Assembly: GCF_031081985.1 (NCBI RefSeq)
Contig: NZ_JARWSK010000004.1
Coordinates: 310,001 to 374,000 of the forward strand
Reading direction: 5' to 3'
Source of the DNA: Komagataeibacter xylinus
GTDB taxonomy: Bacteria > Pseudomonadota > Alphaproteobacteria > Acetobacterales > Acetobacteraceae
DNA: 64,000 nucleotides
The notes beneath the pieces were generated by a model that was given only the letters and a program-made list of their open reading frames with translations, had not been told where the DNA came from and searched no databases. The position numbers and the translations under genes were made by a program. Shown in pieces: positions 65 through 6,215 of the stretch (position 1 is the stretch's first letter; every line of letters starts with the position of its first letter).

Positions 65-1804
65 GTGCTTGCGGCCCTGCTGGCGGCAGCCCTGCTCACG
101 GCCCTGCTGGCCTGCGTGCCAGGGCAGGCGGCCCGGATGCGGCCCATGCTTGTCGCCTGCTGGCTGGGGGTAAGCCTGCTGCAGGGCATGGCGCTTGCGG
201 GGGGCAGGCTGCCCGGCGGGCTGGTGGCGTGGCCGGGCGTTTTTGCCGCGCGGCCTGATCTGGCCCTGCTGCTGCCGCTTGGCCTTGTTGGCGCGGCGGC
301 CCGTAGCCTGCGCGACCTTGCGGCCTGTGTGGCGGCGGCGGTTGCAGTTGCAGGCGCGCCAGTTCTGGCCTGCATGGGGGCAGGCTGGGCGCTGCTGGCG
401 CGCGGCGAGGCGTCACGCCACGGGCCGGAGCGCATCGCCCTGCTTTTACTGGCGGCGGGTTGCGTCTTTCCCACGCAGGCGGGGTGGCTGCTGCCGGGGC
501 TGTGCGCGGTGGGCACGGGGGGGCTGCTGGGGCTTTCGCTTTCGCTGCGGGTGGCCCCGCGTGGCCTGCGGCCTTTCCACATGGCCGATATCGCCGCGAT
601 GATTGCCGCCATGAGCCTGTGGGCGCGCCTGCCTGCGGGCACGGCGGTGTCCGACATGCGCTGGGGCGGCCTGCTGATCGTGGCGGGGTGCCTGTTTTAC
701 ATGACCGCTTCGTGGCGGGCGCTGCGCGCGCCTGATGCGCGCCGGGTCCTGACCGGGCTGGCAGGGGGCACGGGGGCCATCATCATCATGCTCGCAGGCC
801 TCATGCTGCTGGCGCGGGCCGATGACCTGCCGGGCATGGCCAGTTGTGCTCAGCGCACCTACCTGCTGGTGGCGGGGCTGCTGCTCGCTGGCATGCTGGC
901 CGCCCGGGTGCTTGATGTGATGGAGCGCGAGGCAGGCGTGCTCTCGCTGCTCCGGTTGGGTGGGCTTGGGGTGCTCATGCCGCGCCTGTCCGCGCTGTTT
1001 GCGCTTGCGCTGCTGGCCGAAAGCGGGCTGCCGCCGCTGCTGGGGTTCTCCATTATCTGGATGCTGCTGCGCCTGCTGGCCTCCATGCCGCATGCGGGCG
1101 GGTTGGCGGGCGAGGTGCCGCTGCTGGGGGCGCTGGCCGTGCTGGGCGTGGGCTGGGCGGTGCGCCTGCTCGCCCTTGTGCGTATTGTGGCGGTCATGCT
1201 GTGCGGCAGGCCGCGCACGCCACGCGGCGCGGGGGCGGCTGACCCGCCCGTGCGCGCGCAATGGGGTGTGCTGGTGGCGGGGCTGCCGGTCATGCTGGTT
1301 TCCATCTGGCCCGGTTGCTGGCTGGCGTTGATGCAGGGTGCGGCCCCACAGGCGGCTGGCACATGGACGGACCTTGCCGCGGTTGCCCTGACATCGCCAG
1401 ATGGGGGTGCCGCCCTGCATCCGGCCCGCCTGTGCCTGTTTGTCGCCTTGGCAGGGGCAGTGGTGGCGGTTGTGCGGCGGCTGGCCTGCCGCACGCCCAC
1501 GCGGCAGGTGGCGGGGTGGCAGCAGGGCGCGCCCGTGGTGCCACCATGGATGGTGTTTGGTGATCCGCTCACGCAGGTCGGGCCGGGCAACCCCGCGCGC
1601 ATGCTGCTCGACATGGCCGTGGCGGGAGCAACGCGGCGGCATGCCATGCGTGATTATGCCCGTGGCCTGCGGCTGGCGCGCAGGCTCGCGCGGGCTGGCG
1701 CAGGTCGGGTGGCTGGCGCATGGCACGGGCGGCGGGTGCCGGGGCAGGTGGTGCTGGTGGTGGCCTGCGTGGGGGCGCTCATGTTCATTGCATGGCAGGG
1801 ATAG
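65..1804 (+). CDS. hyfB: Hydrogenase-4 subunit B-like membrane protein (NuoL/M superfamily, divergent)
   Basis: A 579-residue, almost entirely hydrophobic polytopic protein, the first of six tightly packed genes. By family it would be a NuoL/M-type antiporter subunit of a group-4 hydrogenase or related complex. The segment AESGLPPLLGF (about residues 320-330) matches the conserved helix that reads LPPLxGF in NuoL, NuoM and HyfB. Unusually, I find no lysine anywhere in the translation, and the usual KSA-PFH-WLP block is absent, although proton-translocating homologues depend on buried lysines. A GTG is used as the start here, but the frame is open to the left edge, so the true start may lie upstream. 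A short frame ends with TGA at 10-12 and may be the tail of a preceding gene. The family call rests on context and the one motif. Confidence 0.72.
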   Translation: MLAALLAAALLTALLACVPGQAARMRPMLVACWLGVSLLQGMALAGGRLPGGLVAWPGVFAARPDLALLLPLGLVGAAARSLRDLAACVAAAVAVAGAPVLACMGAGWALLARGEASRHGPERIALLLLAAGCVFPTQAGWLLPGLCAVGTGGLLGLSLSLRVAPRGLRPFHMADIAAMIAAMSLWARLPAGTAVSDMRWGGLLIVAGCLFYMTASWRALRAPDARRVLTGLAGGTGAIIIMLAGLMLLARADDLPGMASCAQRTYLLVAGLLLAGMLAARVLDVMEREAGVLSLLRLGGLGVLMPRLSALFALALLAESGLPPLLGFSIIWMLLRLLASMPHAGGLAGEVPLLGALAVLGVGWAVRLLALVRIVAVMLCGRPRTPRGAGAADPPVRAQWGVLVAGLPVMLVSIWPGCWLALMQGAAPQAAGTWTDLAAVALTSPDGGAALHPARLCLFVALAGAVVAVVRRLACRTPTRQVAGWQQGAPVVPPWMVFGDPLTQVGPGNPARMLLDMAVAGATRRHAMRDYARGLRLARRLARAGAGRVAGAWHGRRVPGQVVLVVACVGALMFIAWQG

Positions 1805-1806
1805 GG

Positions 1807-2775
1807 ATGGTGGCACCGTTCCTTGCGGCACGCATGCAGGCGCTGTTACTGGCGGGCTGGCATATGGCGCTGGTTGCGCTGATGGCGCCGGTCTGGATCG
1901 CCCTGCTGCGCTGGATGGCGACCTGCATGCAGGGCGAACGCCACCCGCCCGCGCCGCTGGCACACTGGCGCGTGCTGCGCCATGCCTGGCGGCAGGCGGG
2001 GGTGCGTTCGGCGGCAGGCGCGCAGGTTACGGCAGTGGCCCCGTGGCTGGGGCTTGCGGCGGCGCTGGCCGCGGCAGGGCTGGTGCCGTCATTTTGCATC
2101 GGCCTGCCCGGCAGCGACCTGTCGGACCTGCTGATCGTGGGCGGGTTGCTGGAGATGGCGTTTCTGGCCCTTGTGGTCACGGCCCTTGCGGCAGGGCTGG
2201 CCCGCCCCGGCCATGCGGGGCTGAAGGCGGCGTGCATCGGCATCATGATCCAGCCCGTGCTGCTGCTGGTGTGCGTGGTGCTGGGGCTGTGCCTGCCCGA
2301 TGGCACGCTGGCGGGGCTGGTGCGGCAGGCGCATGTGGCGGATATGAACGTGGTGCGCGTGCCGCTTGCGCTGGTGGCGGCCGCACTGGTGCTGGCGGGG
2401 GTGGAGGAAAGCGATGGCGCGGCATTACGCCTGTTTGCCACCATGCTGGAGGACTTGGCAGGCCCCGACCGCGCGGTGGCGCTGTATGCGCGTGACCTGC
2501 TGGCGGTGGTGTGGATGATGGTGGCGCGTGATCTGGTCTGGCCTGAAGGGATCGTGGAACCCGATCTCGTGGCCCGCTCATGGCGGGGCGTATCGCTGCT
2601 GGGGGCGATGGGGCTGTGGGCTGCGCATATGCTGCTGGCATGCGGGTGTGTGGCGGGGCTGCGGGTGTTCGTGGTCTCGGCAGGCAGGCAGCATGCGGGC
2701 TGGCGGGCGGGCTTGGCCCTGTTATGCGCGCTGATGGCCGGGGTGCTGCTGTTCGCGGGCCGGGGGGCGGATTGA
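1807..2775 (+). CDS. hyfC: Hydrogenase-4 subunit C-like membrane protein (NuoH/HycD family)
   Basis: About 322 residues with seven or eight predicted membrane segments, placed where HyfC/HycD (the NuoH-like subunit linking the peripheral and membrane arms) is expected. The ATG at 1807 lies 2 bases after the stop of the preceding gene; an alternative ATG at 1792 would overlap it. The segment around residues 215-245, with FATMLEDLAGPDR and then a helix, resembles the cytoplasmic loop and following helix of NuoH-type proteins, but the sequence is divergent and rich in Ala, Leu and Gly. The function as a membrane anchor for the G and I subunits is inferred mainly from gene order. Confidence 0.68.
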   Translation: MVAPFLAARMQALLLAGWHMALVALMAPVWIALLRWMATCMQGERHPPAPLAHWRVLRHAWRQAGVRSAAGAQVTAVAPWLGLAAALAAAGLVPSFCIGLPGSDLSDLLIVGGLLEMAFLALVVTALAAGLARPGHAGLKAACIGIMIQPVLLLVCVVLGLCLPDGTLAGLVRQAHVADMNVVRVPLALVAAALVLAGVEESDGAALRLFATMLEDLAGPDRAVALYARDLLAVVWMMVARDLVWPEGIVEPDLVARSWRGVSLLGAMGLWAAHMLLACGCVAGLRVFVVSAGRQHAGWRAGLALLCALMAGVLLFAGRGAD

Positions 2776-2777
2776 GC

Positions 2778-3323
2778 ATGCTGGTGCTGTTGCTGGGCAT
2801 GATGGTGATCGTGTCGCTTTCGGGCTCCGGGGGGCGGGGCGGGGGGCTTGCCTGGCATGCGGGCCTGGCTGCGGCATGCGTGTGGCTGTGGCAATGGGGG
2901 CAGGGCAGTGTGGGGCTGTCATGCCTGCTGGCGGTGGCGCAGGCAGGGCTGGTCGGGCTGCTGGGGCTGCAGATGCTGTACGGGCAGGCAGGCCCGCGTG
3001 AGCGCAGTGGCCTGCGTCTTGCCGGTGGGCTGGTCTGCGTTGCGGTGCTGGCGCAGGTGATCGTGCCGGGCATGCCCGGCGGCATGACGGCGCGACTCAT
3101 GGGGCTGGCCGGATTATCCGCCATTCTGTGTGGCGTGTGGGGCGCATGCATTGCCCGTGCCGCCGCCGCCCTGTGCGCGGGGCTGGCCTGCGGGCTTGAT
3201 GGCGTCATGCTGCTGGCGGGGCTGGCCAATAATCCGCAGGTCATGACGGAAACACTCGTTGCGGTCGCGGCCCTGAACCTCATGCTGCTGCGCGCGGCCC
3301 GCTCTGGCGGGGCGGCACCATGA
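2778..3323 (+). CDS. hyfE: Hydrogenase-4 component E-like membrane protein
   Basis: A protein of 181 residues with about six hydrophobic segments. Its size and position between the C- and F-like genes match HyfE, which carries a NuoK-like portion. The ATG at 2778 is 2 bases after the stop of hyfC. A recognisable C-terminal stretch, LANNPQVMTETLVAVAALNLMLL split over residues 150-172, resembles the region near the end of HyfE proteins. No catalytic residue can be assigned. It overlaps the next gene by ATGA at 3320. Confidence 0.65.
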   Translation: MLVLLLGMMVIVSLSGSGGRGGGLAWHAGLAAACVWLWQWGQGSVGLSCLLAVAQAGLVGLLGLQMLYGQAGPRERSGLRLAGGLVCVAVLAQVIVPGMPGGMTARLMGLAGLSAILCGVWGACIARAAAALCAGLACGLDGVMLLAGLANNPQVMTETLVAVAALNLMLLRAARSGGAAP

Positions 3324-4375
3324 TGTCTCCAGCGCTTTTCATCAGTCTGGTGGTGGGCTGGATGGTGCTGGCGGCCATGGCCCTTCTGGCAACCGACGGG
3401 CCAAAGTCCTTGCGGGGCCTGCTGGCCGTGCTGCTCCTGGGGCTGTGCGCGGTGGGCTGCCAGTCTGCCCACCCTATGGCGCAGGCGCTGATGCTGGCCT
3501 GCCCGGCACTGGCGTTGTGCGTGCGCGTTTTCATGCCCGAGGCTACGGCGCACGATGAAGGGCGCATGGCGGGGCCTGAGCCTTTCATCCTGTCAGCCGG
3601 TGCGACGCTGGCGATGGCATGCGGGCGGTGCGACCTGCTGGTCATGTTCATCGGGCTGGGGCTGGGCCTGCATCTGGTTTTGGGCAGGCAGGGCGACTGG
3701 ACCGCGCTGCGCGTGGGGCTGGGGGGGCTGGTCATGGCGCAGGGCGGGCTGTTCGTGCTGCAGGCCGGGTGGGGCGCGCGGCAGGAACAGGCCGGTGCCG
3801 TGCTGCTGGCTGGCGGGCTGCTGCTGGCGTGTGGCGTGCTGTCAGGCAAGCGGCAGCCGCTGGGTGGGCAGATGGCGCTGCTGGCCACCATGCCGGTGCT
3901 GGCACAGGCGGCGATCATGTCGCCTGCCCTGCGCGCAGCACTGACCTTTCTGGGCTGCGTGTGCCTGCTGTGGTCGCTCCTGCCCCGGTCCCGCGCCCAC
4001 GCCGATGGCATGGACTGGTCGGGCTGGGTGGTGCTGGCCGCAGGGCTGCCGCCTGCCACGGCATCCGTGCCGCTGGCGGCCTGCCTGCTGGCATTGGCCT
4101 GTGGTGGCGGGGTGCGGTGCATGGCGGGGCCTTGCAGCCTGTTATGGCCGCCTTTTCTGCCGGGGGTGGCGCTGGCGCTGATGCTGCTGGCCGAGATGGG
4201 GGCCATGCCGGGGGTGGCCCTGCTGGCCGGGGCCTGCCTGTGGCCTGTATTCACCACCACGGCCCACGGCGCGACAGAACCCGCCCCGGTTGCACGGGCG
4301 CGCGCGGCGGTGGCGCTGGTACTGGGCTGCATGGTGTTGGCACTGGCCCTGCATGGCGGGATGGTGCTGGCATGA
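3320..4375 (+). CDS. hyfF: Hydrogenase-4 component F-like membrane protein, shortened
   Basis: A polytopic membrane protein of 351 residues in the position of HyfF, a NuoN/M-like antiporter subunit that is usually over 450 residues. It starts in a 4-base ATGA overlap with hyfE and ends in an ATGA overlap with the next gene, so the shortness is not a simple internal break at a boundary. Only two lysines are seen (in GPKSLRG and SGKRQPL), both probably in loops, so the membrane-embedded lysines of a pump are not evident. The identification rests on operon position and hydrophobicity. It may be a reduced scaffold subunit. Confidence 0.55.
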   Translation: MMSPALFISLVVGWMVLAAMALLATDGPKSLRGLLAVLLLGLCAVGCQSAHPMAQALMLACPALALCVRVFMPEATAHDEGRMAGPEPFILSAGATLAMACGRCDLLVMFIGLGLGLHLVLGRQGDWTALRVGLGGLVMAQGGLFVLQAGWGARQEQAGAVLLAGGLLLACGVLSGKRQPLGGQMALLATMPVLAQAAIMSPALRAALTFLGCVCLLWSLLPRSRAHADGMDWSGWVVLAAGLPPATASVPLAACLLALACGGGVRCMAGPCSLLWPPFLPGVALALMLLAEMGAMPGVALLAGACLWPVFTTTAHGATEPAPVARARAAVALVLGCMVLALALHGGMVLA

Positions 4376-5772
4376 GCGAGGGGATCGTGGCCCTTATCCG
4401 TCAGGGTGCCCCCACGCCCTGCGCCGGGCGCTTCGTGCTGGAGGCCGAGGCGTGGCAGGCCATGATCGCGGGGTTGAGTGCGGCTGACCTGCCCCTGCTG
4501 GGGCTATGGTCTGATGGCGTGCAGGTGCATGCCCTGTTCCACCATGACCCGATGCCGCTGGTTGCGAGTGTCGTGGTATCATCCGGGGGCTATCCCGCCC
4601 TGTCGCCCGTGCGTGTGGGGGCACGGGCGCCAGAGCGCATTATCCATGATCTGTGGGGCATTCCGGCTATTCGCGGCAGGTGCGATCCGTGGCTGGATCA
4701 GGGGCGATGGCCGGTGGCCTCCCCTCTGGCGGCCCATCCCGCGCCCACGCCCGGCCTGCCGGAGGGGCGGGAGTTCATTGATGATGCAGCAGTGCGGCAG
4801 GCAGGCGGCACGGTGCTGGGTTATGGCCCGGCGGAAGGCAATTTCCGTGCCCCGTTTCATCTGCGGCTCGGCCTGCCCGGCGCGCGCATCGAGGCGGTGC
4901 AGCCCTGCATGGGCTACGCGCATCGGGGGGTGGCTGCGCGCCTGCGGGGGCTTGCGCCACAGCAGGCGGCACGGCTGGTCGCCCGGATTGATGCGCCTGC
5001 AACCGTGGCGCACCAGCTTGCCTTTGCCCGTGCCCTGCACAACGCTACCGGCACCGTCATGCCCGCGCAGGACGTGGCGGCAGGCGTGATGCTGGGGGCT
5101 ATGGAACGGATTGCCACCCATCTGGATGTGCTGGCGCAGGCCAGCGCGATCGTGGGTGATGGACGCAGCGCTACCCTGGCCGCCAGCATGCTGGAGCAGA
5201 TGCGGCAGATATGCCGGAACATATGCGGGCGGCGCCTGCTGTTTGATGTCATTCCGCCCGCAGCGGCTTTTTTGATGAACGTGGATGGCACGCAACTGGC
5301 CACGCTGGCAGCGCAGCACGCGCTCCTGCACCGGCTGTTCTGGCGGCCCCGTGGCCTTGCGGCGCAGGCCCGTGGCAAGGGCGTGCTGTCAGCCACAATG
5401 GCTGCCCGCCTGGGCATCATGGGCTGTAATGCGCGGGCGGCGCAAAAAGGGCAGGGCGATGTGACCGACCGGCTTGAGGCCCGTCTGGGCGAGATCGGGG
5501 CCAGCCTGTCCCTGCTTGCCGCCCCGCCCGAAAGCGCTGTCATGGAGGTTGAAGGTGGAGGAGGGGAAGGTCTGGGCTGGGCCGAAGGCCCGGCAGGCCC
5601 GGTCTGGCACTGGCTGCGCCTTGAGGCAGGGCATGTCGCGGCATGGTGGTGTGGTGAGCCGTCACTGGCGCAGGTGCAGGCATTGCCCGCAATCCTGTCG
5701 GGCGCGGCTTATGAGGATGTGGACCTGATTGTGGTCTCGCTGGGCCTGTCAGCCACCGGGGCGGACCTGTAA
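4372..5772 (+). CDS. hyfG: Hydrogenase-4 large-subunit-like protein lacking the Ni-Fe cysteines
   Basis: A 466-residue homologue of the HycE/HyfG (NuoCD-like) large subunit. The N-terminal third resembles NuoC (HDLWGI at about 92-97, as in the HDLYGI motif), then MGYAHRG at about 180-186 marks the start of the NuoD-like domain. In hydrogenases the next motif is R-x-C-x-x-C followed by a conserved His; here residues 205-214 read RIDAPATVAH, so both cysteines are replaced by Asp and Ala while Arg and His are kept. The C-terminus, which should carry D-P-C-x-x-C, reads VVSLGLSATGADL and has no cysteine. A Ni-Fe centre therefore cannot form. It probably keeps the NuoD-type fold in contact with HyfI. 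Start ATG at 4372 overlaps hyfF by 4 bases. Confidence 0.8.
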   Translation: MSEGIVALIRQGAPTPCAGRFVLEAEAWQAMIAGLSAADLPLLGLWSDGVQVHALFHHDPMPLVASVVVSSGGYPALSPVRVGARAPERIIHDLWGIPAIRGRCDPWLDQGRWPVASPLAAHPAPTPGLPEGREFIDDAAVRQAGGTVLGYGPAEGNFRAPFHLRLGLPGARIEAVQPCMGYAHRGVAARLRGLAPQQAARLVARIDAPATVAHQLAFARALHNATGTVMPAQDVAAGVMLGAMERIATHLDVLAQASAIVGDGRSATLAASMLEQMRQICRNICGRRLLFDVIPPAAAFLMNVDGTQLATLAAQHALLHRLFWRPRGLAAQARGKGVLSATMAARLGIMGCNARAAQKGQGDVTDRLEARLGEIGASLSLLAAPPESAVMEVEGGGGEGLGWAEGPAGPVWHWLRLEAGHVAAWWCGEPSLAQVQALPAILSGAAYEDVDLIVVSLGLSATGADL

Positions 5773-6215
5773 TGGCGCAACTCCACATGTTCTGGCCCGA
5801 TGGCACGGCGTTGCCAAGGCTTGAGGCGCTGGACATCTTTCATATCGAAAGCGGCGGCTGCACGGGCTGCGCGCTTGAACTGGCCAGCCTGTCACGCGCC
5901 CTGCTGGCGGGCAATCACCCCATCCGCTTCGTGCCCACGCCCCGGCAGGCGGGCATGCTGCTGCTGACCGGCAGCCTGACGGTGGGCATGGCGCCCGTGG
6001 TCGAACTGGCCTGGCAGGCCATGCCCGGCCCGCGCGTGCTGGCCGTGGTGGGAGACTGTGCGGTGGATGGCGGCCTGTTTGGCGGCAATTACGCCGTGCT
6101 GGGCGGTGTGGGCGTGCGGGCGCGCAGCAACGTGTCGCTGCCCGGATGCCCGCCCGCGCCGGATGAAATCCTGGCCGCCCTGGTGCGCTGGCAGGCTGCT
6201 GAAGGTAAAAGATAA
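5772..6215 (+). CDS. hyfI: NuoB/HyfI-like [4Fe-4S] small subunit
   Basis: 147 residues homologous to NuoB, HycG and HyfI, the subunit that holds the terminal [4Fe-4S] cluster (N2 in complex I). The cluster ligands look complete: SGGCTGC at about residues 28-34, GDC at about 95-97 and LPGCPPAP near 124-131. The ATG at 5772 shares its first base with the last base of the hyfG stop codon. It closes the six-gene run, and its stop codon lies inside the first bases of a dispersed palindromic repeat. An intact cluster beside a large subunit without Ni-Fe ligands suggests an electron-transfer or quinone-type role instead of hydrogen chemistry (inference). Confidence 0.82.
   Translation: MAQLHMFWPDGTALPRLEALDIFHIESGGCTGCALELASLSRALLAGNHPIRFVPTPRQAGMLLLTGSLTVGMAPVVELAWQAMPGPRVLAVVGDCAVDGGLFGGNYAVLGGVGVRARSNVSLPGCPPAPDEILAALVRWQAAEGKR

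What the first reader, a model, noticed from the sequence alone, without database searches (positions are those of the whole stretch)
4372..5772. Group-4 hydrogenase large subunit with all four Ni-Fe cysteines lost
Seen: where hydrogenases have R-x-C-x-x-C plus His, the protein reads RIDAPATVAH (205-214); the C-terminal D-P-C-x-x-C region reads VVSLGLSATGADL and has no Cys. Known: these four cysteines hold the Ni-Fe centre in every hydrogenase of the family, and lineages that lost them (complex I NuoD, Ehr-like complexes) do other redox chemistry. Inferred: this operon encodes a non-hydrogenase energy-converting or quinone-linked complex in an aerobic bacterium, where annotation would wrongly say hydrogenase 4.
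Basis: partly seen in the sequence, partly recalled or inferred. Interest (0 to 1): 0.8.

Follow-up and report, generated by a model that had tools for sequence, protein, structure and literature searches.

The report
Hydrogenase-like complex stripped of its pump
An acetic acid bacterium keeps six genes for a relative of hydrogenase and respiratory complex I that has lost the metal-binding cysteines and, more unexpectedly, residues thought to pump protons, while its iron-sulphur cluster site is preserved, so it probably does something new.

Summary
Confirmed: the large subunit (4372-5772) has no cysteine at any of the four Ni-Fe ligand positions (D207, A210, S460, G463), and HypD was not found in the genome, so it is not a hydrogenase. 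That alone is known: such complexes are called Ehr. New here is the rest of the operon (B-C-E-F-G-I, 65-6215). Of 78 loci whose membrane genes could be read, 43 keep all scored antiporter sites, 31 (the window among them) keep none, and only 4 fall between; the stripped ones also lack the acidic block of C. The window's B has no lysine in 579 residues and its F is unrecognisable. Yet the small subunit keeps its four cluster cysteines in 26 of 28 stripped loci where it was found. B, G and I occur in 19 of 19 genomes of the genus without internal stops; dN/dS is 0.08-0.44. Best reading: an Ehr descendant that cannot pump by the known mechanism, kept as an iron-sulphur-bearing membrane assembly. 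Function is inferred, not shown.

The parts
65..1804 (+). B: antiporter-like membrane subunit (HyfB/NuoM type), 579 aa, no lysine; start codon uncertain, the frame is open upstream
   Evidence: Pfam PF00361 24.5 bits, just over its cut-off of 21.5; HyfB model 6.5e-12, far below that model's own cut-off; hhalign to canonical Ehr B 99.8%; Lys count 0
377..400 (+). B stretch GAGWALLA, near where canonical Ehr has the TM5 Glu (GFELMSL); the Glu falls on Gly or in a gap, by aligner
518..535 (+). B stretch GGLLGL, where canonical Ehr has the TM7 Lys (GSKAGL)
1043..1060 (+). B stretch GFSIIW, where canonical Ehr has the TM12 Glu (GFAGEW)
1807..2775 (+). C: NuoH/HyfC-like membrane subunit, 322 aa, no Pfam match
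   Evidence: no Pfam family; hhalign to canonical Ehr C 99.5%; E. coli HyfC matches relatives L039 at 1e-8 and L035 at 5e-7
2398..2433 (+). C stretch GVEESDGAALRL, beside the deletion that removes the acidic block (PVDNPATHLE in canonical Ehr, PFDLAEAEQEL in HycD)
2455..2475 (+). C motif LAGPDRA or close variants, shared by the aligned Komagataeibacter loci and L041, L042, L044, in place of EYSG
2778..3323 (+). E: small membrane protein at the HyfE position, 181 aa
   Evidence: gene order; matches in related loci; no Pfam family (scanned from 2772)
3320..4375 (+). F: membrane protein at the HyfF position, 351 aa (HyfF 526); homology rests on position only
   Evidence: hhalign 0.3% to canonical F; no Pfam family
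4372..5772 (+). G: large subunit (HycE/NuoCD-like), 466 aa, no Ni-Fe ligand cysteine
4984..5013 (+). RIDAPATVAH (205-214), the former L1 (RxCGxC...H) motif
5731..5769 (+). VVSLGLSATGADL (454-466), the former L2 (DPCxxC) motif; last residue aligned with HycE R537
5772..6215 (+). I: small subunit (NuoB/HycG-like), 147 aa, all four [4Fe-4S] ligand cysteines present (C30, C33, C96, C126), hydrogenase-type CxxC spacing
   Evidence: PF01058 8e-20; alignments

Best explanation
A six-gene Ehr operon whose membrane arm has been disarmed. Shown from sequence: G has neither the Ni-Fe ligands nor the usual quinone or proton-donor residues; B and C have lost the scored ion-path residues of the superfamily, apart from one E-channel column of C; I keeps its four [4Fe-4S] ligands; reading frames, gene order and (in many acetic acid bacterial loci) neighbourhood are conserved. 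Inferred: the proteins still assemble in the membrane around one [4Fe-4S] cluster facing an emptied former active-site cavity, and cannot pump protons by the known complex I/MBH mechanism. Inferred, most likely mechanism: the assembly carries an uncoupled redox function, the cluster exchanging electrons between an unknown donor and an unknown partner, or sensing redox state. I, and among close species C, are the most constrained subunits; B, E and F are the less constrained remnant of the pump. Donor, acceptor and phenotype are unknown.
For: Site states at 85 loci are bimodal. The classes are defined by the scored sites: 43 keep all five of B and of F (B not readable in 3, split in 1), 31 keep none of those readable (B readable in 25, C block lost in 29 of 29 readable), only 4 fall between, 7 had no recognisable B, C or F. 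Canonical C keeps the P-D block in 42 of 42 readable, which was not part of that class's rule. The 20 loci that I took from outside the family were all canonical (B readable in 19). MAFFT and hhalign both put non-ionisable residues or gaps on the window's five B sites; the Lys count needs no alignment: 0 in 16 of 17 complete B proteins of the genus, 1 in the other. The canonical relative L052 scores 165/120/153/116 Pfam bits for B/C/F/G, the window 24.5/none/none/18.5. Small-subunit Cys: kept in 26 of 28 stripped loci where I was found and in 18 of 18 complete I proteins of the genus, though the I core averages 47% pairwise identity. B, G and I occur in 19 of 19 genus genomes, no internal stops in their matches. 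dN/dS: I 0.09-0.22; C 0.08-0.12 in four close pairs, 0.28-0.33 in two distant; B, E, F, G 0.22-0.44; controls 0.05-0.20.
Against: No expression, assembly or metal data. dN/dS of B, E, F and G is several times that of the controls in close pairs, so relaxed constraint is real. The F gene cannot be shown to be homologous to HyfF, so its site calls mean little. L072/L073 lost cluster cysteines too, so the cluster is not always needed; I was not found in 3 of 31 stripped loci. A pump using other residues is not excluded: B still has Arg, Asp, Glu and His, and some stripped C proteins keep E-channel columns. Lys counts are not low everywhere (16 and 24 in L075 and L076). No donor gene was identified. 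12-13 of 32 stripped-type loci did not show the shared neighbourhood.
Confidence: 0.5

Rival explanations
1. Structural relic: the complex has no redox role and is kept because its proteins stabilise or help assemble another respiratory complex (complex I, oxidase), as has been proposed for the deranged bc1 complex of the same family.
For: Precedent: PMC10715153 (abstract and 12 of 18 passages seen) describes bc1 subunits and a COX1-like protein without metal ligands that are retained in Acetobacteraceae and proposes structural roles. Relaxed dN/dS of B, E, F and G. The own genome has two other genes of the complex I 49 kDa family. L072/L073 lost cluster Cys.
Against: Retention of all four cluster cysteines in 26 of 28 stripped loci where I was found and the low dN/dS of I are not expected of a pure scaffold.
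Confidence: 0.27
2. It is still an energy-converting Ehr complex that moves ions by a different set of residues.
For: All six gene positions are kept. B is still recognisably antiporter-like. C carries a motif LAGPDRA shared by the aligned acetic acid bacterial loci. PMC9474812 (12 of 19 passages seen) notes that HycC also lacks some residues of the usual path.
Against: The scored B sites and the acidic block of C are lost together, F is unrecognisable, and the 579 residues of B hold no lysine. HycC lacks one of the five B sites scored, not all.
Confidence: 0.1
3. A decaying pseudo-operon on its way out, caught before frameshifts.
For: dN/dS of B, E, F, G is 0.22-0.44 against 0.05-0.20 in two neighbours; large divergence across genera.
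Against: No stop inside the matches for B, G or I in any of 19 genus genomes. Place kept between HolC and phosphatidylserine genes in about 20 of 32 stripped-type loci and 0 of 21 canonical loci. dN/dS well below 1, with I and (in close pairs) C near or not far above control values.
Confidence: 0.1
4. An ordinary group-4 hydrogenase with ligand cysteines elsewhere in the protein.
For: None found.
Against: All four ligand columns are non-Cys; HypD not found in the genome, while 4 of 14 control genomes ring; no C-terminal extension.
Confidence: 0.01

Closest known systems
Ehr (energy-converting hydrogenase-related) complexes
   Same: Group-4-like large and small subunits with a membrane arm, no Ni-Fe ligand cysteines (definition in passages of PMC6349859 and PMC10432482; the founding paper, Marreiros 2013, is not held). 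The window's G is nested inside canonical Ehr in the tree.
   Different: Canonical Ehr keeps the scored antiporter residues and the C acidic block and the beta1-beta2 Glu and canopy Arg (43 of 43 each); the window has lost these, keeping of 8 HycD E-channel columns only that of E189.
Hydrogenase-4 / formate hydrogenlyase (Hyf, Hyc) of E. coli
   Same: Genes in the order of hyfB-C-E-F-G-I, without hyfD and hyfH; small subunit with hydrogenase-type CxxC.
   Different: No Ni-Fe ligands, no HypD, no ORF in L003 matched E. coli HyfH at E 1e-4 (HyfA/HycB and HycF were not used as queries).
Respiratory complex I (NuoB-NuoCD-NuoH-NuoM/N)
   Same: Cys-less large subunit with R-x-D at the former L1 as in Nqo4; the protein ends where NuoCD ends.
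   Different: Quinone-site His/Tyr positions are Arg/Ala; the small subunit has CxxC, not the adjacent Cys pair of complex I (contrast described in PMC7684303, passage); none of the six genes of the operon is an NADH-module gene; scored pump sites of B and the acidic block of C lost.
MBS sulfane reductase of Pyrococcus (6u8y)
   Same: Superfamily member with a reduced ligand set (profile match 4.6e-15).
   Different: MBS keeps two of the four cysteines (C85, C385 of MbsL; passage of PMC7684303); the window keeps none.
Deranged bc1 complex and COX1-like protein of Acetobacteraceae
   Same: Respiratory genes of the same family that lost cofactor ligands yet are retained (PMC10715153, abstract and passages).
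   Different: Unrelated proteins; there metal ligands are lost, here pump residues are lost and the Fe-S ligands kept. In that paper's main text 'hydrogenase' occurs once (a type 1 hydrogenase) and 'antiporter' never.

Membership tests
Group 4 [NiFe] hydrogenase | Four Cys ligands (L1 RxCxxC, L2 DPCxxC) in the large subunit | tested here: not met
   D207, A210, S460, G463
Group 4 [NiFe] hydrogenase | Hyp cofactor assembly (HypD) in the genome | tested here: not met
   PF01924: 0 of 1 own genome; controls ring in 4 of 14
Group 4 [NiFe] hydrogenase | C-terminal extension removed on maturation | tested here: not met
   The stop follows the residue aligned with HycE R537; that HycE is cut there is recalled
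Respiratory complex I (NuoCD/NuoD) | Quinone-site His (beta1-beta2 loop) and Tyr | tested here: not met
   R159 and A208 at Thermus His38 and Tyr87 in the phmmer alignment; Tyr role recalled
Respiratory complex I (NuoCD/NuoD) | Adjacent Cys pair for cluster N2 in the small subunit | tested here: not met
   CTGC spacing
Ehr complexes | Homologous large subunit without Ni-Fe Cys | tested here: met
   (hhalign 100% to canonical Ehr G)
Ehr complexes | Small subunit with four [4Fe-4S] ligands | tested here: met
   C30, C33, C96, C126
Ehr complexes | Antiporter-like and NuoH-like membrane subunits | tested here: met
   B and C by hhalign 99.8 and 99.5%; F not shown
Ehr complexes | Ion-path residues in B, C and F (presumed function, not part of the formal definition) | tested here: not met
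   F alignment unreliable
Ehr complexes | Charge translocation coupled to redox chemistry | not testable with these tools
   Needs the purified complex or vesicles

The most novel reading that the evidence does not exclude
In acetic acid bacteria evolution has converted a complex I-superfamily machine into one that cannot pump: the ion path through the E-channel and antiporter subunit was lost, after the Ni-Fe site was already gone, while the [4Fe-4S] cluster and the six-gene assembly were kept for a new redox or sensing role under selection. The partial copies L062, L051, L091 and L094 near the base of the clade would be stages of that conversion, and L085 a second, independent case.
Probability: 0.42. 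Interest if true: 0.8.

Novelty: new variant of a known kind. Interest (0 to 1): 0.6.

Why it matters
Which residues of the complex I superfamily serve redox chemistry and which serve pumping is a long debate. Here is a natural series, from full Ehr through partial copies to pump-less ones, in culturable, industrially used acetic acid bacteria (use recalled); 19 of 19 genomes of the window's genus carry the stripped form's B, G and I genes. It also warns annotators: such genes would be named hydrogenase-4 or NADH dehydrogenase subunits but by known chemistry can be neither.

Tried and rejected
AlphaFold2 of G on 5 close sequences gave mean pLDDT 35 and pTM 0.25: not used, and no fold search was run. 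A redox partner gene: an all-against-all comparison of neighbouring ORFs (the 25 commonest clusters shown) gave shared neighbours that I recognise as housekeeping (M17 aminopeptidase, HolC, aldo/keto reductase, phosphatidylserine synthase and decarboxylase; the window/L003 copies confirmed by Pfam); most clusters were not searched against families, so a partner may have been missed. Treating F as a proven HyfF homologue was rejected (hhalign 0.3%). Lysine count as a general marker was rejected: L075/L076 have 16 and 24. 'Pseudogene' was rejected on intact frames and dN/dS.

Limits of the counts. The 85 loci were picked by me from the hit lists, mostly on long contigs; they are not random and include 8 Komagataeibacter loci. 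The classes were defined by the B, F and C sites themselves, so 'all' and 'none' within a class are partly by rule; the informative fact is how few lie between (4 of 78). L070 was put in 'canonical' by hand because its B lies in two ORFs. L034 and L037 are 'stripped' on F alone (contig ends). Several stripped loci lack a readable F (for example L046, L048, L049), and I was not found in 3 of 31 (L046, L056, L079). In the larger alignment two of the five B columns are gaps in the window. The 32 'stripped-type' and 21 'canonical' loci are an earlier, hand-made list that includes 'undetected' loci and partial L094.

Literature searches, all on a library that lacks most subscription papers. On acetic acid bacteria: 0 papers; 15 of 966 listed; 12 of 531; 9 of 9; 12 of 613. 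On Ehr and relatives in general: 20 of 999; 20 of 59; 20 of 50; 4 of 4. No title or abstract start in these listings described such a stripped complex; unlisted papers were not seen.
Full report
What is there. The window belongs to a Komagataeibacter-like genome: the named relatives found are K. xylinus, K. nataicola and K. melomenusus loci at 82-90% protein identity. At 65-6215 (+) lie six closely packed genes: B (65-1804), C (1807-2775), E (2778-3323), F (3320-4375), G (4372-5772), I (5772-6215). G is the finding.

Observation. phmmer against solved structures ranks MBH (6cfw_L), HycE (7z0s_E) and Nqo4 (2fug_4) first, and R205-I-D-A-P-A falls on RMCGIC, RVCGIC and RMDYLH. A 10-sequence profile raises this to 5.5e-34, 1.8e-32 and 4.5e-30. 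On HycE numbering the four ligands are D207, A210, S460 and G463; the beta1-beta2 Glu193 is A160; canopy Arg478 and Asp529 are A408 and G458; but R239, H248, H284, R395 and E437 are kept (roles of Glu193, Arg478, Asp529, His284, Arg395 and Glu437 from passages of PMC9474812). HypD was not found in the own genome (0 of 1; 4 of 14 control genomes ring). So it is not a hydrogenase. That much makes it an Ehr complex, a kind already described (passages of PMC6349859 and PMC10432482).

The membrane arm. The window's B gives 24.5 Pfam bits and C and F none, where the canonical relative L052 gives 165, 120 and 153. Alignment with E. coli NuoM, NuoL, HyfB and HycC puts G, L, I, L and I on the TM5 Glu, TM7 Lys, TM8 Lys, TM11 His and TM12 Glu (NuoM 144, 234, 265, 348, 407). 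In a larger alignment the first and third of these columns are gaps in the window. HMM-HMM alignment, made separately, leaves the TM5 site in a gap, puts Leu on the TM7 site and Ile on the TM12 site, and has no Lys, His or Glu at the other two. C has lost the acidic block, and of 8 HycD positions named for the E-channel the window keeps only the column of E189; canonical Ehr itself keeps Y102, E199 and E201 in only 0, 1 and 0 of 42. B has no lysine in 579 residues; 16 of 17 complete B proteins of the genus have none, the other has one. F cannot be recognised as HyfF (hhalign 0.3%; B 99.8, C 99.5, G 100, I 100%), so site calls for F carry little weight.

What is kept. The small subunit has all four cluster ligands (C30, C33, C96, C126), in hydrogenase-type spacing. 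Over the 85 loci the four Cys are present in 26 of 28 stripped loci where I was found, 6 of 6 of the 'undetected' group, 4 of 4 partial and 41 of 42 canonical loci (the canonical exception, L125, shows Ala at the fourth column). The two exceptions among stripped loci, L072 and L073, are sister sequences. In the genus, 18 of 18 complete I proteins have them, and the one cut by a contig end shows the first three.

Distribution and history. Of 200 family genomes, 181 have a match to G, which mixes Ehr-type genes and NuoD. I read operons at 85 loci of my choosing: 43 canonical, 31 stripped, 4 partial, 7 with a G but no recognisable B, C or F. The classes are defined by the scored sites; what is informative is that only 4 of 78 fall between. 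In four of the seven 'undetected' loci (L057, L077, L078, L098), the only ones of them that I looked at, multi-helix ORFs of B, C, E and F sizes still lie upstream. All 20 loci taken from outside the family are canonical. In a G tree rooted on HycE/HyfG, one clade of 40 rows (30 stripped, 6 undetected, 4 partial; SH-aLRT 98) sits inside canonical Ehr, and L085 is stripped separately (quick method, three long end branches flagged, uneven letter make-up flagged, 31 of 84 inner branches open). The direction is therefore most simply from a full Ehr to a stripped one, with L062, L051, L091 and L094 branching near the base of the clade. The stripped operon keeps a neighbourhood in many loci: M17 aminopeptidase in 19, HolC in 20, and phosphatidylserine decarboxylase and synthase each in 19 of 32 stripped-type loci, and in 0 of 21 canonical loci (names for the window/L003 copies). 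For those loci this points to one vertically inherited place.

Is it alive? In the genus, B, G and I are present in 19 of 19 genomes with no internal stop in their matches (two B copies and one I copy are cut by contig ends). Nei-Gojobori dN/dS over six pairs: I 0.09-0.22; C 0.08-0.12 in four close pairs and 0.28-0.33 in two distant ones; B 0.22-0.40, E 0.26-0.44, F 0.26-0.39, G 0.28-0.34; two neighbouring genes 0.05-0.20. Purifying selection is clear, relaxed for the antiporter side and G, strongest for the cluster subunit and, in close species, the NuoH-like subunit. The E estimate includes some frame beyond the gene (214-234 codons against 181).

How it most likely works. Shown: no Ni-Fe ligands, no known quinone ligands, none of the scored pump residues in B, cluster ligands intact, genes maintained. 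Inferred: a membrane assembly that holds one [4Fe-4S] cluster next to an emptied cavity and passes or senses electrons without coupling to ion movement. The main rival is a scaffold for other respiratory complexes; the same bacterial family keeps bc1 and COX1-like proteins that lost their metal ligands, for which a structural role has been proposed (PMC10715153, abstract and passages). The retained cysteines argue for a redox role; the two loci that lost them argue that the role can be dropped.

Novelty. Cys-less large subunits are known. The literature searches listed under Tried and rejected showed no pump-stripped Ehr in acetic acid bacteria, but the library is partial and most listings were capped, so this is no proof of novelty. 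I rate it a new variant of a known kind.

Noticed in passing
L072, L073 (genomes of 2.7 Mb): Stripped operons whose small subunit aligns G, C, G, S at the four cluster-ligand positions, so the Fe-S cluster is probably lost too.
   Followed up: partly
L085 and L086 (one genome): A stripped copy inside an otherwise canonical part of the tree, with a canonical paralogue on another contig of the same genome: an apparently independent second loss of the pump residues.
   Followed up: partly
L123 (a genome of about 0.9 Mb, outside the family): A very small alphaproteobacterial genome with a canonical Ehr operon, as far as the contig reaches.
   Followed up: no
L090: A canonical-type G and an I with no recognisable B, C or F within the 12.7 kb fetched; the operon may be split.
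   Followed up: no
L001 (G000:C12:419459) and L002 (G000:C3:77864): The own genome has two further genes that match the complex I 49 kDa family, one in a 616-aa open frame that may be a NuoC-NuoD fusion.
   Followed up: no
window 2455-2475 (C subunit): A motif LAGPDRA, shared by the aligned acetic acid bacterial loci in place of HyfC EYSG, hints at a new functional constraint on the NuoH-like subunit.
   Followed up: partly
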